From: Limnohabitans sp.
GTDB taxonomy: Bacteria > Pseudomonadota > Gammaproteobacteria > Burkholderiales > Burkholderiaceae_C
Direction: 5' to 3'
Assembly: GCF_023910625.1 (NCBI RefSeq)
Contig: NZ_JAAVVW010000003.1
Span: 2,108,001-2,172,000, forward strand
DNA length: 64,000 nt
This document shows positions 42,285-58,242 of the stretch, piece after piece. Below the pieces are notes generated by a model. The model was not told where the DNA came from. It did no database searches and saw only the letters and a program-made list of their open reading frames with translations. How positions within the stretch are numbered: position 1 is the first letter of the stretch; every line of letters begins with the position of its first letter. Made by a program: the position numbers and the translations under genes.

Positions 42285-42295
42285 TCATTGAATGA
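42285..42295. promoter_or_regulatory. operator half-pair 1 upstream of HipA-like gene
   Basis: TCATTGAATGA, an 11-base palindrome about the central G. It is the exact reverse complement of the site at 42341-42351, 56 bases away. Confidence 0.5.
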
Positions 42296-42340
42296 CAACA
42301 GCTTAGAACGCCCGTATCATCGGCGTATTTATTCAGTTAT

Positions 42341-42351
42341 TCATTCAATGA
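42341..42351. promoter_or_regulatory. operator half-pair 2 overlapping the HipA-like start codon
   Basis: TCATTCAATGA, an 11-base palindrome covering the ATG at 42348. Together with 42285-42295 it suggests autorepression by the protein's own N-terminal helix-turn-helix (inference). Confidence 0.5.
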
Positions 42352-43679
42352 CCGACGCCGAAAACCTGATTGCAGCCCTGCGACGCCATAACGGCCAGGC
42401 CAGCAGCCCCGAGTTGCAGGCACGGCTGGGCGTGAGCCAGCCTACGGCCTCACGCCTGCTGGCCCCCTTGTTGGCGTCGGGCCAGGTGATCAAGGTAGGA
42501 GCTGCTCGTGCGCAGCGCTATTTGCTGCCGCGTGATGTGCCTGGTGTTGGGCGGCAGGTGCTCATTCATCAGGTGCTGCCCAGTGGCGAGCTGCAACTCT
42601 TTGGCACGCTCTACCCGCTGGTTGGTGGTGGGTTCTGGATGGAAGAAGCCGACAAGGTCCATGGCCAAAGCGCGTTTCACCCCAGCCTGCCCTGGTTTTT
42701 GATGGACACCCGACCCCAAGGTTTTTTGGGCCGCGCCTTTGCGCAGGTGCATGCTGAGCTGGCCTTGCCCCCCCACTTGGCGCACTGGAGCGACGACCAC
42801 ATCCTGCTGGCGTTGGTGCGCGCAGGCGAAGACTTGCCCGGAAATTTGCTGGTGGGCGCTGCGTCGCTCGACCGTTATTTGGCCTTGCCCCCCAACCGCA
42901 GCGCGGCTCCGTTGGTGACCGACTCGGCGCGCGACTACCCGCATTTGGCATTGCAGGCTTTGGGCAGTGCCGCCCCGGGCTCCAGCGCGGGGGGCGAGCA
43001 GCCCAAGTTTGGCGCGGTAAAGGACGGCTTGCCCGTGCTGGTCAAGTTCTCGCCCGCAGGCGACGCCCCGGCCGACCAGCGCTGGCGCGACCTGCTGGTG
43101 TGCGAGGCCCTGGCCCTGCAAACCTTGCAAACCGCAGGCATTGCCGCCGCGCAGACCGACATCGTGCAGGCCGGTGGTCGCGTCTTTTTGCAAAGCCGCC
43201 GCTTTGACCGCACGGTGCAGGGGCGCATGGGCATGGTGTCTTTGGAGATGTACGACGCGCACTACATCGGCATCGGATCGCAATGGGCGGCCACCGCCAT
43301 GCAGACTGGGCGAGCAGGCGCAGAAAAATTGAGCGTCACCGACATCCAGACGCTGTGCCTGCTCGATGCCTTTGGCGCCCTGATCGCCAACACCGACCGC
43401 CACCACGGCAATGTGTCGCTGCTGCTGCACCAACACCGCTGGCAACTGGCCCCCGCCTACGACATGCTGCCCATGTTTTACGCCCCGGTGGCGGGCGAGG
43501 TGGTCGAACGCGATTGGGCCAGTCAGCTGCCACGCCCCAATGCCCACACCCTGAGCGTCTGGCCGCAGGCGAAGGCGCTTGCCTTGCAGTTCTGGCAAAG
43601 CGCAGCGGCAGATGCCCGGATCAGTGAGGACTTCCGAGTTGTGGCGCGAGTGAACAGGTGCTTGGTGTCTCAGGCATGA
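42348..43679 (+). CDS. YjjJ-type HipA-like kinase with fused helix-turn-helix
   Basis: A 443-residue protein, the same length as E. coli YjjJ. The N-terminal ~75 residues are a winged helix-turn-helix (LGVSQPTASRLLAPLLASGQV). The remainder is a HipA-like kinase fold with GGEQPKFGAV (phosphate/nucleotide loop), the catalytic Asp in NTDRHHGN and the metal-binding Asp in PAYDMLPMFY. YjjJ relatives act as toxins that need no separate antitoxin gene. Start ATG 42348 is chosen; an in-frame start 60 bases upstream would swallow the operator palindromes. It overlaps only upstream frame sequence of the next gene. Confidence 0.88.
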   Translation: MTDAENLIAALRRHNGQASSPELQARLGVSQPTASRLLAPLLASGQVIKVGAARAQRYLLPRDVPGVGRQVLIHQVLPSGELQLFGTLYPLVGGGFWMEEADKVHGQSAFHPSLPWFLMDTRPQGFLGRAFAQVHAELALPPHLAHWSDDHILLALVRAGEDLPGNLLVGAASLDRYLALPPNRSAAPLVTDSARDYPHLALQALGSAAPGSSAGGEQPKFGAVKDGLPVLVKFSPAGDAPADQRWRDLLVCEALALQTLQTAGIAAAQTDIVQAGGRVFLQSRRFDRTVQGRMGMVSLEMYDAHYIGIGSQWAATAMQTGRAGAEKLSVTDIQTLCLLDAFGALIANTDRHHGNVSLLLHQHRWQLAPAYDMLPMFYAPVAGEVVERDWASQLPRPNAHTLSVWPQAKALALQFWQSAAADARISEDFRVVARVNRCLVSQA

Positions 43680-43738
43680 AACGCTACATTGGTGTGAACA
43701 AGAAACACGCGCCGATGGACGCATCAAGGAGGCTTTCA

Positions 43739-44569
43739 ATGACCGATCACGAGATACAGCTTTTTGAATCCATCCATGTCCGTTCGCATTGGGATGAGGC
43801 GCAAGAGAAATGGTATTTCTCGGTGGTCGATGTGGTTCGGGTGTTGACGGATTCCACCAACCCGACGGATTACCTCAAAAAATTACGCAAGCGAGATGCA
43901 GAGCTGGGGAGCTACCTGGGGACAAATTGTCCCCAGGTCGCCATGCCCAGTGCCTCTGGGGTGATGCGCAGAACCCTGGCCGCCGATGTGCCCACACTCT
44001 TGCGCCTGATCCAGTCCATCCCTTCGCCCAAGGCAGAGCCCTTCAAACAATGGCTAGCCAAGGTGGGCTACGAGCGCATGCAGGAAATCGCCGATCCGGC
44101 GCAAAGCCTGGACCGCGCCCGCGAAAACTGGCAAAAAATGGGGCGCAGCGATAAGTGGATTCAGCAGCGCATGACCGGGCAGGAAACCCGCAACAAGCTG
44201 ACCGATTACTGGCAGACACACGGCGTGCAAGGCTCGGATCAGTTTGCCCTGCTGACCAACCTGATTCACCAGGAATGGGCGGGCGTCAGCGTCAAGGAAC
44301 ATAAGGCGCTTAAAACCCTGAAAACCCAAAACCTGCGCGATCACATGAGTGAGGCTGAGTTGATATTCACGGCGCTGGCGGAGTTGTCCACCCGCCAGAT
44401 TGCGCAGAAAGAACAGGCGCAAGGCTTGAGCGAAAACGCCAAAGCGGGTGTCGCGGGCGGGCGTGTGGCCAAACGTGCCAAGGAAGACCTAGAGCAACTG
44501 ACGGGGCAGCTTGTGGTGACCGGGAGCAATTTTCTGCCGCCACCATCTGGGAAAAAACGGGTTCGTTGA
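43739..44569 (+). CDS. Bro-N/DinD-like protein (phage antirepressor-type)
   Basis: A 276-residue protein. The N-terminal Bro-N-like domain (KWYFSVVDVVRVLTDSTNPTD, YLKKLRKRD) is typical of phage antirepressors. The C-terminal half (TGQETRNKLTDYWQTHGV, HMSEAELIFTALAELS) is typical of proteins annotated as DinD/BRO. Function is unproven: possibly DNA-damage-linked regulation. Start ATG 43739 has AAGGAGG 7 bases upstream. It follows the HipA-like gene by 59 bases. Confidence 0.75.
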   Translation: MTDHEIQLFESIHVRSHWDEAQEKWYFSVVDVVRVLTDSTNPTDYLKKLRKRDAELGSYLGTNCPQVAMPSASGVMRRTLAADVPTLLRLIQSIPSPKAEPFKQWLAKVGYERMQEIADPAQSLDRARENWQKMGRSDKWIQQRMTGQETRNKLTDYWQTHGVQGSDQFALLTNLIHQEWAGVSVKEHKALKTLKTQNLRDHMSEAELIFTALAELSTRQIAQKEQAQGLSENAKAGVAGGRVAKRAKEDLEQLTGQLVVTGSNFLPPPSGKKRVR

Positions 44570-45378: not shown

Positions 45379-46356
45379 TCAGTTCTTGTGCAACTCAGCG
45401 TTCAACTCGCCCCAGCTCTTGTTGCGCGGGATCGCGTGCAACGCGCCCGACTGTGAGTCGCGGCGGAACAAGATGCCGTTTTTGCCGGACAACTCTTTGG
45501 CCTTCATGACCGAGCCGTCGGGCATTTGGACGCGGCTGCCGCCGGTGATGTAGCAACCGGCTTCGACGATGCAGTCGTCGCCCAGCGAGATGCCGATGCC
45601 GGCGTTGGCGCCCAGCAGGCAACGCTTGCCGACCTTGATGACTTCTTTGCCGCCGCCCGACAGCGTGCCCATGATGGAGGCGCCGCCGCCGATGTCGCTG
45701 GCGTCATCGACCACCACGCCTGCGCTGATGCGGCCTTCGACCATGCTGGCGCCCAAGGTGCCGGCGTTGAAGTTGCAAAAGCCTTCGTGCATCACGGTGG
45801 TGCCACTGGCCAGGTGCGCGCCCAGACGCACGCGGTCGGCGTTGGCAATGCGCACGCCCGATGGGATCACGTAGTCGGTCATTTGCGGGAACTTGTCCAG
45901 GCCCTTGATCTCAAGCACGCGGCCAGTGCCACGGGCTTTCAACCGGGCGGCGGGCACATCGGCCAGCGCGCAGGGGCCAAAGTTGGTCCAGGCCACGTTG
46001 GGCAGCAGACCAAAGATGCCGGTCACGTTGGCACCGTGCGGCAACACCAGGCGGTGGCTCAGCAGGTGCAGGCGCAGGTAGGCGTCGTGCGTGTCGGCGG
46101 GCGCGTCGGCCAGGCTTTTGATCTCGGTGCGCACGGCGACCACGGTGGCGTTGCGCACGCTGCAGGCGACCAGGGCTTGGGCCACGTCAGCGCCCAGTGC
46201 GGCGACGGCTTCGGCCAGGGTCAGGCGGGTGCTGCCGCTGGCGGCGACGTCGGCAGCCAGTTCGGGGGCCGGGAACCAGGTGTCCAGCACGGTGCCGTCA
46301 GCGGCGATGGTGGCCAGGCCCGTGGCGCGTGCGCCGGTGGTTTGGAATGTGCTCAT
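45379..46356 (-). CDS. dapD: 2,3,4,5-tetrahydropyridine-2,6-dicarboxylate N-succinyltransferase, long type
   Basis: A 325-residue left-handed beta-helix transferase of lysine/diaminopimelate synthesis, transferring succinyl from succinyl-CoA. The N-terminal ~110 residues form the extra domain of the long DapD type. The hexapeptide-repeat core includes SGVRIANADRVRLGAH, MHEGFCNFNAGTLGAS, the GGGASIMGTLSGGG loop and LLGANAGIGISLGDDCIVEA. This type is known from actinobacteria and pseudomonads; many betaproteobacteria carry the shorter ~275-residue form. Confidence 0.88.
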   Translation of the reverse strand: MSTFQTTGARATGLATIAADGTVLDTWFPAPELAADVAASGSTRLTLAEAVAALGADVAQALVACSVRNATVVAVRTEIKSLADAPADTHDAYLRLHLLSHRLVLPHGANVTGIFGLLPNVAWTNFGPCALADVPAARLKARGTGRVLEIKGLDKFPQMTDYVIPSGVRIANADRVRLGAHLASGTTVMHEGFCNFNAGTLGASMVEGRISAGVVVDDASDIGGGASIMGTLSGGGKEVIKVGKRCLLGANAGIGISLGDDCIVEAGCYITGGSRVQMPDGSVMKAKELSGKNGILFRRDSQSGALHAIPRNKSWGELNAELHKN

Positions 46357-46590
46357 GTTTTGCTCCGCAAAAGAAGGCCCGCCATGCTGGCGGGCCGTTG
46401 AAAATGGGAAGGGGTGATTATCGGGGATGTGTCATCGAGCGCATTGACTGCGCTCAATCGCTGTCTGTGCTGACCGGTTACCGTGGTCAACCGTGTTGCA
46501 GCGCGGACCTGAATTGGCAGGATAAAAACCCTGGGAACAAATGGATAGGAAATCCAACAGCATGGGCACAAGAATGGCATCGGGGTGGGG
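46357..46590. other. gap left of the CRISPR relic, no gene seen
   Basis: No coding frame with family character. It probably contains the dapD promoter on the right-hand side and unassigned sequence up to the IS21 end. Confidence 0.4.
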
Positions 46591-46823
46591 TGTTGCCGCC
46601 GACCGAAAACTGACCATCTAAACCTAGGAGTGCCGACTCAAAATTGACCAGGGTGTTCAACTGCTCTGCTGAATATTTCAGCAGGAGCGCAAGAAAGTGA
46701 TCACCATGGAAATGATAGGCAAGGTCAGGCGCATGAAGTTGCGCGAGCAACTCTCCCACAGCGAGATAGCCAAGCGCACGGGTTTGTCGCGCAACACGGT
46801 CAAAAAATGGCTCAAGACGTCGC
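46591..46823 (+). mobile_element. remnant of an IS21-family left end with istA 5' fragment
   Basis: Two related terminal-type repeats, GACCGAAAACTGACCA (46601-46616) and GACTCAAAATTGACCA (46635-46650), precede a frame starting MITMEMIGKVRRMKLREQLS with the helix-turn-helix AKRTGLSRNTVKKWLK. This is the start of an IS21 IstA transposase. After about residue 42 the frame continues as adenosine deaminase sequence, so only the end of the element survives. Confidence 0.8.
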
Positions 46824-47977
46824 AGTGGCCCTGGGACTGGCCTGATAGGCTGCACGGCTCACAGCGCGCACTGGCCAGTGCTGCGCTGCTGATTCACGCA
46901 AGCCCTGAGCAGCTACAGCACAACCTCTTTGCCGTCACCGAACCACGCGTAGCCCTGAAAAAATGCAGCGCGCACGGCTTTGCCGCATACGAGCGCCCAG
47001 GCGAACTCAGCGGCTCGGCCCTGCTGTGCCACCCGGCAGCCCTAGCCCCTTATGCGCAGGCCGTGGTGACGCAGGCGCTGCAAGAAGGTCTGTGCTACTT
47101 GGAGCTGCGCGGCAGCCCGCACAAATACCGGCCACTCGACCCAACGGGCTTTTTGCGCGATTTGTCCACCGAACTGGACCGTGCGCTGGCGGCTGCGCCG
47201 CCCATGCAGACGGGGAGCGTGGGCGTAGCCAGCAGCGCCCCGTTGCGCATCGGCTTTGTATGGATAGTGGACCGCCGCCAGCCCCAGCAAGTGCCCACCG
47301 TGGTGCAAGCTGCAGTGGCGGCACGCGCGTAACTACCCGATTTTTTACTGGGCCTGGACTTGGCGGGCGATGAAGGTACCCACAACCCCGCCGCGCTGGC
47401 CACTGGCTTTGCCCCGGCTTTTGCCGAGTGCCTACCCTTGACCATCCACGCCGGTGAAGGCGAAGCCGCGCAGAACATCTGGCAAGCCGCCTACCACCTG
47501 CACGCAGACCGCATTGGCCACGGCCTGACGCTGGCCGAGCATCCACAGCTTGCCGCGCGCTTTCGCAATCGCGGCATCTGCTTGGAGCTGTGCCCCAGCT
47601 CCAACCGCGAAGTGGTGGGCTTTTTTGACCCCGCCTACCCCGCCACCGACGGCCTGCCTCGCTACCCGCTGCGCCGCTTCATACAGCAGGGCCTGCCGCT
47701 GACGCTGTGCACCGACAACCCTGGCATCTCGCGCACCAGCTTGGCCGACGAATACCTGGCCGCTGCACGCATGAGCGAAGGCGGCTTAACTCTTTGGGAA
47801 ACACTGGCGCTTACGCGCCAAGCCTTCCTGCACGCCTTTTTGCCCGCCGCCGATCGCGAGGCGCTGCTCAAGCGCATGGACGAGCAGGTGTTTGTGCTGC
47901 ACAGCCGAGGCACGGTGCCAAGCTCGGGCCCCTCAGACATTGGCGTAGCGCAACTTCGCTCGGCCTCTGGCGCATGA
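46697..47977 (+). pseudogene. adenosine deaminase family gene, 5' end replaced by istA and split by an in-frame stop (Cad1-like?)
   Basis: From about 46830 the frame reads as the metallo-deaminase TIM barrel: ALQEGLCYLELRGSP, the zinc/catalytic HAGEGEAAQ, DRIGHGLTLAEHP, LELCPSSN and the metal Asp in LCTDNPGISRTSL. The N-terminal metal motif (HxH) and anything before it are missing, replaced in frame by the istA start. A TAA at 47330-47332 interrupts the frame between AAVAARA and LPDFLLGLDLAGDEG, with the same frame continuing on both sides. It is directly upstream of csx16. CRISPR-associated adenosine deaminases (Cad1) carry an N-terminal CARF domain, which would have been the lost part (inference). 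An ordinary deaminase is the alternative. Confidence 0.75.
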
Positions 47978-48019
47978 AGGCCTCGCGCCCCGAAGCGTAA
48001 ACCGCATTTCACACGACAC

Positions 48020-48337
48020 ATGGCCACCTGGTTCATCAGCCGCCACCCCGGTGCCAAAGCCTGGGCCGCAGAGCAAGGCCTGCACATCGACCAACACCTG
48101 GCGCATCTGGACACAGCGCTCATCCAGTACGGCGACACCGTCATCGGCACCCTGCCCGTGCACCTGGCCGCTGCCGTCTGCAGCCAAGGCGCACGGTATT
48201 TCAACCTCAGCCTGGACCTGCCCGCCGACTGGCGTGGGCGCGAACTCAGCGCCTACGAACTGCGCCAATGCCAAGCACGACTCGAGTGCTTTGAGATTCA
48301 AATGATCCCAGCTTCATTCGCCGAGGCACTGCCATGA
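48020..48337 (+). CDS. csx16: CRISPR-associated protein Csx16 (VVA1548 family)
   Basis: A 105-residue intact gene: MATWFISRHPGAKAWAAEQG, then HLDTALIQYGDTVIGTLPVH and CSQGARYFNLSLDLP plus RGRELSAYEL, the full signature of the VVA1548/Csx16 family. Members occur with type III CRISPR systems and have been proposed to degrade cyclic-oligoadenylate messengers. No type III effector complex remains nearby, so it is orphaned. It begins 42 bases after the deaminase remnant. Confidence 0.85.
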   Translation: MATWFISRHPGAKAWAAEQGLHIDQHLAHLDTALIQYGDTVIGTLPVHLAAAVCSQGARYFNLSLDLPADWRGRELSAYELRQCQARLECFEIQMIPASFAEALP

Positions 48338-48392
48338 ACCATCCGGCCATGGCAACCGACGCCGTGAACACACGGCGCTTACGAAGGACCGT

Positions 48393-48791
48393 TCAATTGA
48401 CGCCGCTTTTGACAAACAAGCGCATCCAGGCATCGCGGGGACTGAGTATTTGCATATCGCCTTGGGCACCCCAACCCAAGACCCGCCGATCCCCTGTCAC
48501 AAACACCACGGCCCCCGCCTCTTGGGCAGCCCGCACCAAACGCACATCGTTGTCGTCGGCCGGCTCATCCACATCTGGCGCACAAGCTGCCACAGACCAA
48601 ATCGCATCAAACATGGCCTGTGACTGTGGCAAATGGGGAAACTTGCGCCAGAGCACCTCATGCGCCTCAGCCTGCACCAGGCGCGTTGTCAACAGCCAAT
48701 TGCGCTGGGCCGACTCAGTCAAGATTTCTGCACACAAACCTGCAAACACCGTGGCCGACAGCCACACATTGGTGTCCAGAAACACCTTCAC
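48393..48791 (-). CDS. VapC-type PIN-domain toxin
   Basis: A 132-residue PIN ribonuclease: MKVFLDTNVWLSATVF with the first Asp at residue 6, an acidic residue in QAEAHEVLW near 42-45, DNDVRLVRAAQEAGA and VTGDRRVLG near 100. Predicted metal-dependent RNase inhibited by the adjacent antitoxin. Its ATG overlaps the antitoxin stop (ATGA), the usual coupled order antitoxin then toxin. Confidence 0.88.
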   Translation of the reverse strand: MKVFLDTNVWLSATVFAGLCAEILTESAQRNWLLTTRLVQAEAHEVLWRKFPHLPQSQAMFDAIWSVAACAPDVDEPADDNDVRLVRAAQEAGAVVFVTGDRRVLGWGAQGDMQILSPRDAWMRLFVKSGVN

Positions 48792-49015
48792 GACACGTCT
48801 CGCAAAATGTCATCCTCGGTCAGCCAGCCCGCCTGCCGCGCTGCGGGGCCCAGTTCGGAATGCGCCGCTTGCAAGGCCGTACGCAAGCGATAACCCCGCA
48901 AGGACTCGGCCAGCAACTCCCGCACCACCTCGCTCTTGGTCTTGCCCGTTTGCTCGCAAGCCAGCTGCAAATCGCGCTCTTCGCGCTCGGTCAAACGCAC
49001 GGTCAACGTACTCAT
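48788..49015 (-). CDS. ribbon-helix-helix antitoxin (CopG-type) for the VapC toxin
   Basis: A 75-residue protein: N-terminal ribbon-helix-helix STLTVRLTEREERDLQLACE, TGKTKSEVVRELL, and a toxin-binding tail (WLTEDDILRDVS). Predicted DNA-binding autorepressor. ATG 49015 is chosen; longer in-frame sequence upstream lacks support. A dyad around GTATTAC...GTCATAC (49047-49063 region) upstream is a possible operator. Confidence 0.82.
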   Translation of the reverse strand: MSTLTVRLTEREERDLQLACEQTGKTKSEVVRELLAESLRGYRLRTALQAAHSELGPAARQAGWLTEDDILRDVS

Positions 49016-49093
49016 TTCAGTCCTTTCAGCGCACCCCCATGAATGCGTATGACATCGTAATACATCCATCCACTCTCAGCAAGCTCCTATGAA

Positions 49094-50561
49094 CCTATTT
49101 CCGGCAGTTGACATTGCGTAAACCGGCTGCAAGCTAGACTAGATGCCAATTTCAATGGATTTATTGGAGTCACCAAATGGGTGAAGCAAAAAGGCGTCAA
49201 CTTGCTGTCCAAACGCAGGCACTGGAGGCCATGGTCGTGGATACGCCGGGCGGGCGAATTCATGTGAAGTAGGACCATGGTGCCAGCGCCACACCGAATG
49301 CACAGTTGACCTTCTTCTCCGAGTTCTTGGCCACCACGGGTGTGTACAGCTCCTGGGTCGATAGCTGCCCATTGACCTACACAAGCCCCAATGCACCCAG
49401 CAAACAGGATATCTTGGGCACATGGCTGCTGGCGATACTGGCAGGGCACAACCGCTACGCCCACATCACCGTGCTGCGCGACGACATCAAGCCGATGTTC
49501 GGAAAACAAAGCGGAGCTGAGGTCAGCTACAACCCACACAAACCCGGGCGCCCGAGCCACGCACTGCACACATACTGGGTTGGCAACCTGCGCTTGGTGC
49601 TGGACGTCGTTGTCTGCCCCGGCAAAGAGCACAGCGCAGCCAAAGCGCGGCCTGGTCTGATCGGCGTACTGGAAAAGCTCACGCCCCAGCAGCGTCCGAC
49701 CTTGGTCCGAGGCGACTGCGGCTTTGGCAACGAACCCTTTATCACCGAGCTGGAGGAGCGAGCCCAGCCCTACCTGTTCAAGCTGCGTCAAACTGTGGGT
49801 GTCAAGAAATTATTGGCACGCCAATTCGCGCGTGATGACTGGAGCACACCCGGCCCCAGCGAGCAAGGCTGGAGCGCAGTCGAAGATACCCTCAAACTCT
49901 CGGGCTGGGACAAATCACGTCGGGTAGTGATCTTGCGGCGTGCCGTCAAAGCCGATTTGGCGCTGAGTCGAAAGACCAAGAACGAGCCGGGCGAGCAGAT
50001 TGAGTTGCTGATGCCGGACAAGGATGTTCAGGTTTGGGAATACGCGGTGTTGGTGACAAACAGCGCCTACGCATTGGACGCGTTCGGTCAACTCTATCGG
50101 GACCGGGCTGACTGCGAGAACGGATTTGACGAGCTCAAAAATCAGTGGGGATGGGGTGGCTTCACGACCCAGGACATTGAGCGCTGCCAGACCAGTGCTC
50201 GCGCTGTAGCGCTGGTGTACAACTGGTGGTCCTGGTATTGCCGGGCGGCCAAGCCGGGTGCACGCATGGAAGCCATAACCAGCCGAGCGTTATTGCTTGC
50301 CAGTGTGGGGCGCGCTGTCAAACATGCGGGACAGACAACGCTGTATCTGACACCCATGCATGCTGCCAAGGACAAGTTGCTCGCGCTCATTGCCAACATT
50401 CGTGCGGCTTTAAGTCATGTCAGGGATGTTGCGGAGCAGTTGCCTTTTACGGATCGATGGAGGACATTTCTGGACTACGTGGTGGCCAAAATCACGCGCC
50501 CACTGCCACCTTGGCTACCGTCAGCCCAACTTACAGCGGCAGGGTAACTGCCGGATTTAGG
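49094..50561 (+). mobile_element. IS1380-like insertion sequence, degenerate
   Basis: Imperfect terminal repeats: CCTATTTCCGGCAGTTGAC at 49094-49112 and GTAACTGCCGGATTTAGG at 50544-50561 (reverse complement CCTAAATCCGGCAGTTAC). It encloses one damaged transposase. No flanking target duplication was found, which fits an old insertion or a deletion at one side. The right end joins directly to the cas2 remnant. Confidence 0.75.
49177..50547 (+). pseudogene. IS1380-like transposase, nonsense mutation and internal deletion
   Basis: The frame from ATG 49177 has a TAG at 49270-49272, exactly where GGRIHVK-W-DHGASATP would be expected. The rest is open for 413 codons from 49306. The C-terminal core is well preserved (GAEVSYNPHKPGRPSH, LVRGDCGFGNE, YLFKLRQTVGVKKL, YRDRADCENGFDELKNQWG). 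The region HITVLRDD runs straight into IKPMFGKQ, skipping the segment that normally carries the first catalytic Asp (LDxDTT-type), so an internal deletion is inferred. Inactive. Confidence 0.78.
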
Positions 50562-50774
50562 ATCATCGAACGTCTGCGCGAACTCATCGACGAACGCGCC
50601 GACGACGTGCGCATCTACCCGCTGACCGAAAACACGCGCATCTGGGGCCTGGGGACACAATTCAATGACGACGGCAATACGCTGTGCGACGATTTCATGG
50701 ATAAACTCAGAGCGGTGGACCACGACACCGAACCCAGCACGGCAGAAGACGACAAAAGGCTCAACTTTTCATGA
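50562..50774 (+). pseudogene. cas2: cas2, 3' fragment truncated by the IS1380-like element
   Basis: Seventy codons reading IIERLRELIDERADDVRIYP, LTENTRIWGLG and a variable tail to the stop. The phrase LIDxxxDDVRIYPL is the typical second half of Cas2, the small adaptation nuclease-fold protein that pairs with Cas1. The N-terminal strand with its Asp is missing; the frame begins directly at the right end of the insertion sequence. Confidence 0.82.
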
Positions 50775-50837
50775 CCCAAATTCCTTGGCAACCCAGCACG
50801 CAAGTAATGGATGCCATTGGATTTTTTGGACCGAGGA

Positions 50838-50873
50838 GCCAAACCCAAGCCCCGAAAATCAGGGGATTAAGAC
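50838..50873. CRISPR. single leftover CRISPR repeat
   Basis: A unit ending CCCC-GAAAATCA-GGGG-ATTAAGAC (50850-50873), preceded by AACCCAAG. A short palindrome around an 8-base loop with an ATTAAGAC end is the form of many type III/I repeats. It lies 64 bases after the cas2 fragment, the expected leader distance. No second copy follows, so the array has collapsed to one repeat. The length of about 36 bases is estimated. Confidence 0.6.
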
Positions 50874-50986
50874 CTGTTAGTGCGAGCATGTTTACTTGGT
50901 TAATCGCCGCCCCCAGGTTCTTGGTTGTATCGAAGCGACAACTAGTCTGACACAGGGGGGCACCAGCTTACGCAGGTGTGGGGGCT

Positions 50987-51877
50987 TCATTTGCGGTTGA
51001 CCAGCACAATGCCCACCGCCACCAGCGTCAAGGACAGGGTCAGGGTGAGTGTGACGGTTTCGCCCAGCCAGAGCATGCCGAACAACAGCGCGAACAGCGG
51101 TGTCAGAAAAACAAAGGCCGAAATTTTGGTGGCCGGGTAGTGGCCCAGCATCCACATCCAGGCCAGGTAAGTGGCAAAGGCACCGACCACGGTCTGCACC
51201 ACCACCGAGGCCATGGCAAAGCTGCTCCAGGGGTTGTCCCAGGGCTCGCCCATCCCGTGCGACAGCAGGGCCAGCACCGCGGTGCTGACGGCCAGTTGGT
51301 AGAACAGCAGCTTTTCCGCCGACAGCCGCGTGAGGTTGGTGGCCCGGATGGCCACGGTGGTCAGCCCCCACAAGGCCCCGGCTGTCAGTCCCATCAGATC
51401 GCCCGTGGCATTGCCACTGCCAAAGCCTTCGCGCAACGCGAACACCATAGCGGCAAAAGCGCAGGCCAAGCCCAGCCATTGCACTGGCCGCAGCCGTTCG
51501 GTGCGGATGAACCAAGGCAACAGGGCTGCCACCCAGAAGGGCGAGGTGTACAAAAACACCGTCAGTCGTGATGCCGAGGTGTGCTGCAGCCCGATGTAGA
51601 GAAAGGCAAATTCAAGCGCAAACAGGCAGCCTACCAGCAGACCTGCCCACAGGCTGCCATCGCGTGCAAACAGATGCACCCCGCGCCACTGGCACCACAC
51701 CCACAACAGCAGTGTGGCACCCAGGCTGCGCACCGCCGACTGGAACACCGGGGGCAACTCGGCCACTGTGGCTTTCACCATGACCTGTTGAAACCCCCAA
51801 AACAAACAGCACAACAGCAAGATCCCGACCGCCAGGGGGTCCAAGTGGTCTTTGCGGGGACGGCTTGAGGTATTCAT
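50987..51877 (-). CDS. EamA/DMT-superfamily metabolite exporter
   Basis: A 296-residue inner-membrane protein with ten predicted helices as two EamA repeats (LLCCLFWGFQQVMVKATV and TAGALWGLTTVAIRATNLT mark the two halves). Substrate unknown. ATG 51877 is used; upstream in-frame sequence is not membrane-like. It forms the right border of the CRISPR relic. Confidence 0.88.
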   Translation of the reverse strand: MNTSSRPRKDHLDPLAVGILLLCCLFWGFQQVMVKATVAELPPVFQSAVRSLGATLLLWVWCQWRGVHLFARDGSLWAGLLVGCLFALEFAFLYIGLQHTSASRLTVFLYTSPFWVAALLPWFIRTERLRPVQWLGLACAFAAMVFALREGFGSGNATGDLMGLTAGALWGLTTVAIRATNLTRLSAEKLLFYQLAVSTAVLALLSHGMGEPWDNPWSSFAMASVVVQTVVGAFATYLAWMWMLGHYPATKISAFVFLTPLFALLFGMLWLGETVTLTLTLSLTLVAVGIVLVNRK

Positions 51878-52007
51878 GGGTCGATTGTGCCGCCATCCAG
51901 CTCGGCACGCTGTCACCTTGCACGGCGGCATGGGCGGTTAACATGTCTGACAACAGCCAGCGGCTGACGCCCGCTCTTCTCCTTTTGTAATCCTGATCGA
52001 CCGCTTC

Positions 52008-53585
52008 ATGGCCTTTTCAGTCCGAACCCGTATGGATGTGTCTCGTCGAGACCTGCACCGCATGGCTTTGGCCGCAGCCTTGGCCCCCTGGATGGCGTGG
52101 GGTGTTCAGGCGCAAGGGGCAGCCCCGCGATGGCAGGTCAATCCCTTCAGTTTGGGGGTGGCCAGTGGTCAGCCCCAGCCGGGCAGTGTGGTGCTGTGGA
52201 CGCGCTTGCTCATCCACGAAGCCGATGCCGCATGGCGAACACCGGGCCCAACAGTGGTGTGCGAGTTGTATGCCGACGAGGCTTTGCGCCAGCCGGTTCG
52301 GCAATGGCGACTGGTGGCAGACCCCCAACGTGGCCACAGCCTGCATGTGCTGGCCGATGGGCTGCAAGCCGGGCGTCCCTATTGGTACCGTTTTGTCAGC
52401 GGTCAGGCCGTGAGTGCGGTGGGCCGAACCCGCACAAGCCCCGCACTGAACGAGCCGGTGCGCCGCTTGCGACTGGCTTTGGCGTCTTGCCAGCATTACG
52501 AACAAGGGCACTTTGCAGCGCACCGCCACATGGCAGCGCAAGACCTGGACCTGGTGCTGTTTCTGGGTGACTACATCTATGAAAGCAGCAACAAGAATTT
52601 CAAGATCCGCGCCCACGAAAGCGGCATGCCCTTTTCGTTGGCCGAGTACCGCGCACGCCATGCGCTGTACAAATCCGACCCCGACTTGCAGGCCTGCCAT
52701 GCGGCGCATCCCTGGCAAATGACCTGGGACGACCATGAGGTGGTGAACGACTACGCCAATGACCTGGACCGCAATTTCACCGAACCGGCCGTGTTTTTGA
52801 AGCGGCGTGCGGCGGCCTACCAAGCGTATTTTGAGCACATGCCCTTGCGCATCGGGCCTGATGCGGCGCAGCCCAGTCAGATGCGCATCCATGACCGCAT
52901 GGCTTGGGGCACCCTGGCCGATCTGTGGACCTTGGACTGCAGGCAATACCGGGACCACCAGGCCTGTCCGGATCCGATGCGGGGTGGGGGGCGTGTGGTC
53001 ATGGGTTGTGAGGCATTGAACGATCCGGCCCGCAGCATGCTCGGCGCCGCGCAAGAGCAGTGGCTGACCGCGGGCCTCACCCAAACACAGCGTCGCTGGA
53101 AATTGCTGGCGCAGTCCACCTTGATGGCCAGCAGTGGCCTGTCTACGCCCTTGGGCCGCAGCGCCTTCACCGACGGTTGGGACGGTTATCCGCAAGCGCG
53201 CTCGCGCCTGTTGCAGACCTTGGCTGATGCGCGGCTCAAGGATGTGGTCATGCTGGGCGGCGATGTGCACGCCAATGTGGCGGCGCAGCTGCGTTTGCAC
53301 GCGGGCGATGAGCGCTCGCCCGTCCTGGCCAGCGAATTGGTGACCACGTCTGTATCGTCCAGAGGCATGTCCAAAACGCTGATGGCACAAATTCAGGGCG
53401 AGAACCCGGACCTGCGCCATGCCCGTTCAGACGAACGGGGTTACACCTTCATTGACCTACGGCCTGAGCGACTGGATGCGCAGTTTTTGACCACCCCGCA
53501 CCCGGTTGCGCCCCATGCCGGACTGAGCGTTCAGGCCCGATGGGCCGTGCACCAGGGCGTAGCCGGCGTCGGGCCGGGTGCATGA
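52008..53585 (+). CDS. PhoD-type alkaline phosphatase, Tat-exported
   Basis: A 525-residue phosphodiesterase/alkaline phosphatase D. Twin-arginine signal SRRDLHRMALAAALAPW, N-terminal PhoD_N domain (NPFSLGVASGQPQPGSVVLW), then the metallophosphatase domain with FLGDYIYE, TWDDHEVVNDYAND, VMLGGDVHANV and late GYTFIDL. It needs Ca and Fe in characterised members. ATG 52008 or the in-frame ATG at 52032 both keep the Tat motif. Confidence 0.93.
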   Translation: MAFSVRTRMDVSRRDLHRMALAAALAPWMAWGVQAQGAAPRWQVNPFSLGVASGQPQPGSVVLWTRLLIHEADAAWRTPGPTVVCELYADEALRQPVRQWRLVADPQRGHSLHVLADGLQAGRPYWYRFVSGQAVSAVGRTRTSPALNEPVRRLRLALASCQHYEQGHFAAHRHMAAQDLDLVLFLGDYIYESSNKNFKIRAHESGMPFSLAEYRARHALYKSDPDLQACHAAHPWQMTWDDHEVVNDYANDLDRNFTEPAVFLKRRAAAYQAYFEHMPLRIGPDAAQPSQMRIHDRMAWGTLADLWTLDCRQYRDHQACPDPMRGGGRVVMGCEALNDPARSMLGAAQEQWLTAGLTQTQRRWKLLAQSTLMASSGLSTPLGRSAFTDGWDGYPQARSRLLQTLADARLKDVVMLGGDVHANVAAQLRLHAGDERSPVLASELVTTSVSSRGMSKTLMAQIQGENPDLRHARSDERGYTFIDLRPERLDAQFLTTPHPVAPHAGLSVQARWAVHQGVAGVGPGA

Positions 53586-57361: not shown

Positions 57362-58242
57362 ATGCCGGGCAAGATCAAGGCCGCGCCCATGGCATGGTGC
57401 CACCCCATCGTCTCGCCCAAGACCAGCCAGGCGGCCAACCCGCCATACAAAGGCCCCAGGTACAAACTGGCTGCGACCCGGCTGGCACCCAAGACCTTTT
57501 GGCAAAAGCCATAGGCCCAATACGCCCCAATCCCTGGCAACAAGCCTGCGGCCACCACCAAAAGGGTGGCCTGCGGGGTCCAAGCGGGTGTGTCGGCTTG
57601 AACGAACTCCCAAGCGGCCAAGGGCAGCAGCACCAGCATGCCCCCCATGCAAATGGCGGCCAAACGCGCGGTGGAGCCCAGCGGTGTGGGCCACTTTTTT
57701 TGCAGCAAGGCAAATGCCGCCCAGGCCACCATGGCCAACACGATCCAGCCGTCCCCTGCGACCCATTGCACTTGGCCCAAGGCCAGCCACTGGCCTTTGA
57801 CCACCACATGGAACACGCCCGCCATGGCGATCACCACGCCCAGGCCTTGTCGCCACGAAAACCGTTCGCCCAACCAGACCACAGCGCCCAGCGCGATCAG
57901 CACGGGTGAAGCGGCGTAAATGAGAGCGATGTTCATGGCCGTGGTGGTTTGCGCGCCTTGGTAAACCCAAGCCCCGCAAATCAACATGCCCAAGGCCCCC
58001 AACACCAAGTAACGACCCGCATCGCGCAGCGTGCTGTGCCGTTCGCGCCACAGTTCGCTGCGCGCAAAAAACGCCAGAATCACCCCTGCCAAAGCCCAGC
58101 GGCCCAAGGCCAGCATGTGCGGCTCCACCACGCCGGGGGCGGAGCGCGCCACGATGTAATTGACCGACCACAAGGCGGGTGTGACCCACATCAGCCACAG
58201 AGCAATGCGGGTGCGGGATTCAGCGGTTTGAAACAAAGACAT
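57340..58242 (-). CDS. EamA/DMT-superfamily metabolite exporter
   Basis: A 300-residue, ten-helix transporter with two EamA repeats (WVTPALWSVNYIVARSAPG and MVAWAAFALLQKKWPTP mark the halves; ENFxxE-type signature seen as LGERFSWRQGLG). Not closely similar to the EamA gene at 50987-51877. Start ATG 58242; the frame continues upstream without membrane character. Confidence 0.88.
   Translation of the reverse strand: MSLFQTAESRTRIALWLMWVTPALWSVNYIVARSAPGVVEPHMLALGRWALAGVILAFFARSELWRERHSTLRDAGRYLVLGALGMLICGAWVYQGAQTTTAMNIALIYAASPVLIALGAVVWLGERFSWRQGLGVVIAMAGVFHVVVKGQWLALGQVQWVAGDGWIVLAMVAWAAFALLQKKWPTPLGSTARLAAICMGGMLVLLPLAAWEFVQADTPAWTPQATLLVVAAGLLPGIGAYWAYGFCQKVLGASRVAASLYLGPLYGGLAAWLVLGETMGWHHAMGAALILPGIYLASRR

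What the first reader, a model, noticed from the sequence alone, without database searches (positions are those of the whole stretch)
46591..50873. Wreck of a type III CRISPR-Cas locus
Within 4.3 kb lie an adenosine deaminase remnant, an intact csx16, a cas2 3' fragment and one CRISPR-like repeat at the expected leader distance, all cut up by IS21 and IS1380-type elements and joined by a VapBC pair. No Cas10, Csm/Cmr or Cas1 remains. The strain appears to have lost a type III system and kept its accessory debris.
Basis: partly seen in the sequence, partly recalled or inferred. Interest (0 to 1): 0.8.

Follow-up and report, generated by a model that had tools for sequence, protein, structure and literature searches.

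The report
Ruined type III-B CRISPR locus
A bacterial immune locus has been gutted by jumping genes, leaving one intact helper gene, fragments of others, one CRISPR repeat and a toxin-antitoxin pair that already sat inside such loci; the ruin itself is ordinary, the recurring toxin-antitoxin passenger less so.

Summary
Between the flanking genes called dapD and EamA lie an IS21 stub fused to the back half of a CARF-adenosine deaminase (Cad1) with an in-frame stop, an intact csx16, a VapBC pair, a defective IS1380 transposase, a cas2 3' fragment, a leader and one 36-base CRISPR repeat, cut by the end of a third mobile element. Same-genus genomes settle the origin: 4 of 90 carry type III-B (Cmr) loci that between them match csx16, cas2 end, leader and repeat (35/36 in two, 33/36 in two). 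The genome shows no Cas10 and no second such repeat, but keeps type I-F genes. One point changes: VapBC did not join the wreck. The csx16-VapBC block is collinear (88%) with a complete III-B locus, and relatives of this VapBC sit among III-B genes in nine loci and beside csx16 in two further ruins, opposite in strand to the cas genes in 12 of 12 linked loci, window included. In all three ruins VapBC is intact; csx16 is broken in one. My reading: an addiction-type module that deletions spare, with csx16 in its shadow. The ruin is a known kind; the passenger deserves study.

The parts
   Evidence: ORF; 56 of 60 genus genomes match 45379-46560; gene name not tested
46697..46816 (+). stub of an IS21-type istA (helix-turn-helix end), read in frame into the deaminase
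   Evidence: NF033546 on residues 11-44; deaminase homology begins at about residue 41; boundary approximate
46817..47977 (+). Cad1 (CARF-adenosine deaminase) remnant: CARF domain and HxH segment missing, in-frame stop at 47330-47332
   Evidence: PADLOC CARF_ADA 2.2e-26 and 1.6e-88; alignment with 14 of the 43 relatives
48020..48337 (+). csx16, intact, predicted cA4 ring nuclease
   Evidence: PF09652 and TIGR02620; departs from no column that is at least 90% conserved in 20 relatives
48393..48791 (-). vapC-like PIN toxin gene
   Evidence: PIN_3 at E up to 0.01 in 16 of 16 members aligned; invariant D6, E42, D82, D101
48788..49069 (-). vapB-like ribbon-helix-helix antitoxin gene (conserved part begins near 49015)
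   Evidence: RHH_1 and DUF6290, both under cut-off; partner of vapC in relatives
49306..50547 (+). IS1380 transposase with an internal in-frame deletion
   Evidence: NF033539; 57 codons missing against L175
50556..50774 (+). cas2 3' fragment
   Evidence: 77% and 86% identity to Cas2 of G450 and G456; PADLOC Cas2 0.00025
50775..50837 (+). CRISPR leader
   Evidence: 50747-50873 is 83% identical to leader plus first repeat of G441
50838..50873 (+). single CRISPR repeat
   Evidence: 35/36 to the G441 and G439 repeats; only copy in the genome at up to 3 mismatches of a 24-base core
50874..50899 (+). 26 bases of a presumed first spacer, cut short
   Evidence: position; array periods in relatives are mostly 65-74, so spacers of about 33
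50900..50964 (.). end of a third mobile element
   Evidence: 92% to a G441 contig; 25-33 bases of it recur at five sites of G423
   Evidence: ORF; 46 of 60 genus genomes have some match to 50900-52300; gene name not tested

Best explanation
The stretch is what remains of a type III-B (Cmr) CRISPR-Cas locus of a lineage still complete in the same genus. The ancestor carried cad1, csx16 and, between csx16 and the next CARF nuclease gene, a VapBC pair on the opposite strand, then cas genes and an array. Mobile elements removed the rest: a loss reaching into cad1 next to an IS21 stub took the cmr genes and the CARF half (inferred); a loss spanning the IS1380 copy took everything from behind VapBC to the middle of cas2 (inferred from the order in G441 and G450); a third element cut the array after one repeat. 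CRISPR function is gone here: no effector, no adaptation gene, no array. The Cad1 piece lacks its sensor, the HxH segment that I take to be part of its metal site, and continuity. Csx16 is intact but has no known cA4 source. The only self-contained module is VapBC. I propose that VapBC acts as an addiction module: cells that delete it are poisoned, so deletions stop on either side, and csx16 persists as its neighbour. Shown: pieces, origin, synteny, intact VapBC and csx16 frames. Inferred: deletion events, VapBC toxicity, the sparing effect. The confidence given is for the III-B ruin with VapBC as an older part of the locus; for the sparing effect alone I would say about 0.35.
For: Families of each piece. 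Same genus: csx16 in 6 of 90 genomes; four (G439, G441, G450, G456) have cas10, cmr1 and cmr3-6. The csx16-VapBC block 48019-49072 is 88% identical and collinear with G441; the cas2 end matches G450 and G456; leader and repeat match arrays of the four. Second ruin G467: csx16 fragment with a stop beside intact VapBC. Third ruin G569 in another family: open csx16 and VapBC, no cmr match in 19.7 kb. Window vs G441: vapC dN/dS 0.06, csx16 0.25. Own genome: no Cas2 family match, no Cas10 match, one repeat.
Against: VapBC toxicity was not tested, and the PIN and RHH scores of the window proteins are below curated cut-offs. Cad1 was not found at E 1e-20 in the other 89 genus genomes, so the exact ancestor has no intact copy in hand; cad1 may stem from another III-B lineage. 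Finding VapBC in ruins is partly an ascertainment effect: G467 was met by a csx16 search, G569 by a VapC search. The dN/dS values include the branch of the intact locus. Cas10 and cmr were not searched in the whole genomes of G467 and G569. The own-genome searches are weak controls: the Cas10 query had no positive control and the Cas2 family search missed even this cas2 fragment. csx16 without a recognisable cmr gene is not confined to these ruins: 7 of 14 other family loci lack a cmr match, four of them with another CRISPR gene.
Confidence: 0.85

Rival explanations
1. Csx16 is kept for a job of its own: a stand-alone ring nuclease that destroys cA4 made by another system or by an incoming type III locus, so the ruin is a repurposed anti-signalling gene.
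For: Reading frame intact and no departure from columns at least 90% conserved in 20 relatives; csx16 is also open in the G569 ruin, though it departs at three such columns; a representative Csx16 degrades cA4 (PMC12409355, passages); a csx16 relative occurs in 2 of 50,697 phage records, two entries of one archaeal virus.
Against: csx16 is broken in the G467 ruin while VapBC is intact; no cA4 producer is known in the genome (no Cas10 match; other cyclases not searched); csx16 is the immediate neighbour of VapBC.
Confidence: 0.15
2. VapBC is a plain mobile toxin-antitoxin pair that landed in III-B loci several times and near dapD; it was in this locus before the decay but has no bearing on which debris survived. 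(This disputes only the sparing step of the best explanation.)
For: In the genus 9 of 90 genomes have this VapC and 6 of those 9 have no csx16; four of these six lie within 1.3 kb of dapD; the VapC tree of 21 rows needs 5 changes between linked and free loci, at least 4 forced, and 46 of 500 shuffles cluster as much; none of 9 plasmid III-B regions carries it.
Against: 12 of 12 linked copies are opposite in strand to the cas genes or csx16; among 27 loci with a cmr gene that were not fetched by VapC, 5 carry it, against 5 of 399 genomes in the family.
Confidence: 0.45
3. The pieces were never one locus: unrelated debris gathered between dapD and EamA by transposition.
For: Three mobile elements lie in 4.3 kb; the dapD surroundings vary across the genus.
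Against: csx16-VapBC collinear with G441, and cas2-leader-repeat order as in G450.
Confidence: 0.03

Closest known systems
Type III-B locus of same-genus genome G441 (L126)
   Same: csx16-VapBC order and strand, 88% nt over 1055 bases; leader 83% and repeat 35/36
   Different: G441 keeps cas10, cmr1, cmr3-6, a CARF nuclease gene, cas6 and 19 repeat units at its contig end; no cad1 match in that genome
Csx16 ring nuclease family (PMC12409355, passages read)
   Same: Full-length member with the conserved columns kept
   Different: No type III effector found in the genome to make cA4
Cad1, CARF-adenosine deaminase (PMC11645235, passages read)
   Same: C-terminal part of the deaminase, 1.6e-88 to CARF_ADA
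   Different: CARF domain and HxH segment absent, stop codon inside
Toxin-antitoxin pairs in cas loci (PMC3936711, passages read)
   Same: A PIN toxin pair within a CRISPR locus
   Different: That paper says such pairs were found only in type I systems of its collection; here they lie in III-B loci, on the opposite strand in the 12 linked loci seen
CreTA guards of CRISPR-Cas (abstract starts of PMC10097628 and PMC9458426)
   Same: Idea of a toxin module that punishes loss of the CRISPR system
   Different: CreTA uses an RNA toxin repressed through the CRISPR effector; VapBC is a protein pair, and no CRISPR control of it is shown

Membership tests
Type III-B CRISPR-Cas locus (as a functional system) | Cas10/Cmr2 with Cmr1 and Cmr3-6 | tested here: not met
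   No match in the 64 kb window; no Cas10 match in the own genome, without positive control
Type III-B CRISPR-Cas locus (as a ruin of one) | Pieces homologous to, and in the order of, complete III-B loci | tested here: met
   csx16, cas2 end, leader and repeat match same-genus III-B loci; cad1 has no counterpart in the genus
CRISPR array | At least two repeats with spacers | tested here: not met
   One repeat, cut first spacer
Csx16 | Profile match over the full domain | tested here: met
   TIGR02620 126.5 bits against cut-off 46.35
Csx16 | cA4 cleavage | not testable with these tools
   Shown for another member (PMC12409355, passages)
Cad1 | Deaminase domain | tested here: met
   PF00962 7.7e-33 over 158-329 of 330, second piece only; CARF_ADA for both pieces
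Cad1 | CARF sensor domain and HxH segment | tested here: not met
   Replaced by the IS21 stub; that the HxH segment holds metal ligands is recalled for the family; H243 is named as a metal ligand in PMC11645235, not mapped here
Cas2 | Full-length protein | tested here: not met
   Only the 3' part; profile positions 46-70 of 74
VapBC | PIN domain with four acidic residues | tested here: met
   PIN_3 in 16 of 16 members at E 0.01, D6 E42 D82 D101 invariant; the window's own score of 22.4 is under the cut-off of 27
VapBC | Overlapping antitoxin gene with a DNA-binding fold | tested here: inconclusive
   RHH_1 17 bits, cut-off 20.5; the pair is kept in most relatives
VapBC | Toxin activity neutralised by the antitoxin | not testable with these tools
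   Needs expression

The most novel reading that the evidence does not exclude
A VapBC pair embedded on the opposite strand is a recurrent guard of type III-B loci: transcription of the cas operon runs through vapBC in antisense and holds it down, so shutting off or losing the operon frees the toxin. Ruins such as this one are cells that escaped by keeping the pair and its neighbour csx16.
Probability: 0.1. Interest if true: 0.65.

Novelty: new member of a known kind. Interest (0 to 1): 0.4.

Why it matters
CRISPR loss is usually seen only as absence. Here complete loci and two stages of ruin coexist in one genus (a third ruin in another family), so the order of loss can be read, and they point to an embedded toxin-antitoxin pair as the part that resists deletion. 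If the opposite-strand placement has a function, it links type III immunity to toxin-antitoxin control in a way that I did not see in the listings of five literature searches (one search listed 10 of 144 papers) or in the passages found in a 2025 review of the subject.

Tried and rejected
A weak repeat-like match at 57963-57983 was taken for a possible second array relic and dropped: over 36 bases it scores 22, as do two other places. The 26 bases after the repeat have no exact match in viral contigs. Rfam finds nothing in the window at gathering scores. csx16-VapBC has no DNA match in plasmids and VapC two remote ones. Solved structures: no credible relative of Csx16 or VapC by sequence (the matches listed are weak and to other kinds of protein, and are ignored). 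Structure prediction was not used. The idea that the debris stems from VapBC copies beside dapD in other genomes was rejected: two of those are 75% identical to the window at DNA level, the G441 block 88%. Several VapC loci lie on short contigs or at contig ends (L137, L138, L151, L154, L158, L173) and give little context. L112 and L045 hold weak or partial VapC matches and were not counted as linked or free.
Full report
What is there. Reading from dapD rightwards: an ORF (46697-47332) begins with the N-terminus of an IS21 transposase (NF033546 on residues 11-44) and runs, from about residue 41, into a deaminase; after an in-frame stop the same frame continues to 47977. Both pieces match the PADLOC CARF_ADA profile, at positions 293-411 and 415-598 of 605. 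An alignment with 14 of the 43 cad1 loci found in named genomes shows that the CARF domain and a conserved LPKADLHRHLGG-like segment lie upstream of the junction and are lost. So this Cad1 is dead. csx16 follows (48020-48337), full length; against 20 relatives it departs from no column conserved in at least 90%. Then vapC and vapB on the minus strand, an IS1380 transposase lacking 57 codons, about 70 codons of cas2, a leader and one repeat.

Origin. A profile search for csx16 in the 90 held genomes of the genus found 6: this one, G439, G441, G450, G456 and, with a stop, G467. Four hold cas10, cmr1 and cmr3-6 next to csx16, and the Cas10 of G456 scores as Cas10b, subtype III-B. Window 48019-49072 is collinear with G441 at 88%; cas2 is 77% and 86% identical over 70 residues to G450 and G456; 50747-50873 matches the G441 leader and first repeat at 83%. 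The repeat differs from the G441 and G439 unit at one of 36 positions and from those of G450 and G456 at three; no other place in the window scores above 22. Chance is excluded. To the right, 50900-50964 is the end of another mobile element, found at 92% in G441 and in part at five places of G423.

What is gone. Against the order of G441 (cmr genes, csx16, VapBC, CARF nuclease, cas6, leader, array) and G450 (cas1, cas2, array), the window lacks everything left of the middle of cad1 and everything between VapBC and the last 70 codons or so of cas2; the genus reference proteins find no other cas gene in the 64 kb. The simplest account is one deletion beside each of the IS21 and IS1380 copies, plus the element that ended the array. 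This is inference. cad1 has no match at E 1e-20 in the other 89 genus genomes, though cad1 directly before csx16 occurs elsewhere (L021, L027).

The genome around it. Cas2 and Cas10 searches of the own genome were empty (the first misses even this fragment, the second had no positive control); the repeat core occurs once. A Cas1 match on another contig belongs to type I-F genes: cas1, cas2-3, csy2 and csy3 were confirmed by profiles, the neighbouring ORFs that would be csy1 and csy4 were not scanned. Between cas3 and the csy genes lies a PIN-like gene (DUF3368, under cut-off) next to a helix-turn-helix/peptidase gene. The dapD-EamA intervals of the 15 genus genomes that I fetched hold no cas gene or csx16.

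The VapBC pair. In the family sample 5 of 399 genomes have this VapC (6 places), in the order sample 10 of 399 (11 places), in the genus 9 of 90; csx16 is in 15 of 399 family genomes, 14 over the cut-off, and 6 of 90 in the genus. Both occur in 3 of the 5 family genomes and 3 of the 9 genus genomes (Fisher p = 0.0004 and 0.012; kinship ignored, and the two family draws taken to be the same genomes because their handles agree). With two cases among the cad1 loci (L024, L056), 12 loci hold VapBC within or beside III-B genes or csx16: nine with cmr genes (G441, L024, G027, G324, G248, G768, G573, G530, L056) and three ruins (window, G467, G569). In 12 of 12 it is on the strand opposite to the cas genes or csx16. 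The slots differ: csx16/CARF nuclease, cmr6/csx16, cmr6/cas6, cmr6/CARF nuclease, cmr5/cmr6, and after cas6. A VapC tree of 21 chosen rows needs 5 changes between linked and free copies, at least 4 forced by well supported branches; 46 of 500 shuffles cluster as much, so linked copies are not clearly one family. The association therefore arose or was lost several times, and the sign-test p of 0.0005 for 12 of 12 overstates the number of independent events, which may be about five. Fourteen further VapC places are not linked to cas genes in the DNA held; of six in the genus, four lie within 1.3 kb of dapD and one beside the gene that neighbours dapD-side VapBC elsewhere.

How common in III-B loci. 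Of 43 cad1 loci, 14 family csx16 loci and 5 genus csx16 loci, 16, 7 and 4 contain a cmr gene recognisable with my reference proteins; VapC is in 2, 2 and 1 of these, 5 of 27 in all (repeats of a genome between sets were not removed). The other 7 family csx16 loci show no cmr match: four have another CRISPR gene, three none, two of these on short stretches and one a sub-cut-off csx16 match. So csx16 without visible cmr genes is not unique to these ruins. Nine plasmid III-B regions out of 36 records with a Cmr4 match hold no such pair, by annotation and by a VapC profile (which also covered a tenth, csx16-bearing region). Thermus HB8 has a VapC with an AbrB-type antitoxin 1.4 kb behind cmr6 on the same strand, and Vibrio aerogenes a RelE-type pair about 3 kb behind cmr6 on the opposite strand. 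So this VapBC is a regional habit, seen here in the window's order (by the names probably Burkholderiales; not identified by a call) plus one Chloroflexota bin, not a general part of III-B.

Reading. VapBC is open in all three ruins; csx16 is open in two and broken in one. This fits an addiction module that deletions must spare, with csx16 a lucky neighbour. vapC between window and G441 has dN/dS 0.06 and csx16 0.25, but both values include the intact branch. A representative Csx16 degrades cA4 (PMC12409355, passages); here it has no known substrate source. It may still be used, and I leave that as a rival at 0.15.

Literature. PMC3936711 (passages) reports toxin-antitoxin pairs in cas loci, in its collection only in type I systems. 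A 2025 review (PMC12737573, find in the main text) has no occurrence of VapBC, type III CRISPR, type III-B or Cmr. CreTA (starts of abstracts) is the nearest idea of a guard. The listings of searches showed no paper that I could recognise as being on VapBC within III-B loci; most listed papers were not opened, and the library lacks most subscription journals.

Verdict. A decayed CRISPR locus is a known kind of thing; the repeated opposite-strand VapBC passenger is the part worth follow-up.

Noticed in passing
[quoted passage not shown]
   Followed up: partly
L169, L170, L171, L173 (G420, G405, G481, G472): A second lineage of the same VapBC lies within 1.3 kb of the 3' end of dapD in four genus genomes, on the other side of dapD from the ruin; dapD flanks look like a variable site.
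   Followed up: partly
L155 8730-9981 (G569): Ruin in another family: open csx16 and VapBC, with an integrase-domain ORF running into vapBC from the right.
   Followed up: partly
L127 9838-10713 (G467): Same-genus ruin reduced to a csx16 fragment and an intact VapBC between two ORFs that look like a carbohydrate kinase and an aminotransferase (names recalled, not tested).
   Followed up: partly
L140 9065-9508 (G027): A different PIN-domain gene (PF01850) sits between cmr4 and cmr5 on the cas strand, so this locus holds two PIN genes.
   Followed up: no
window 42288-44569: A HipA-like gene followed by a Bro-N gene lies left of dapD, the side on which four relatives carry VapBC.
   Followed up: no
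L045 4943-5173: Short VapC-like fragment 5 kb from a cad1 gene, also on the opposite strand.
   Followed up: no
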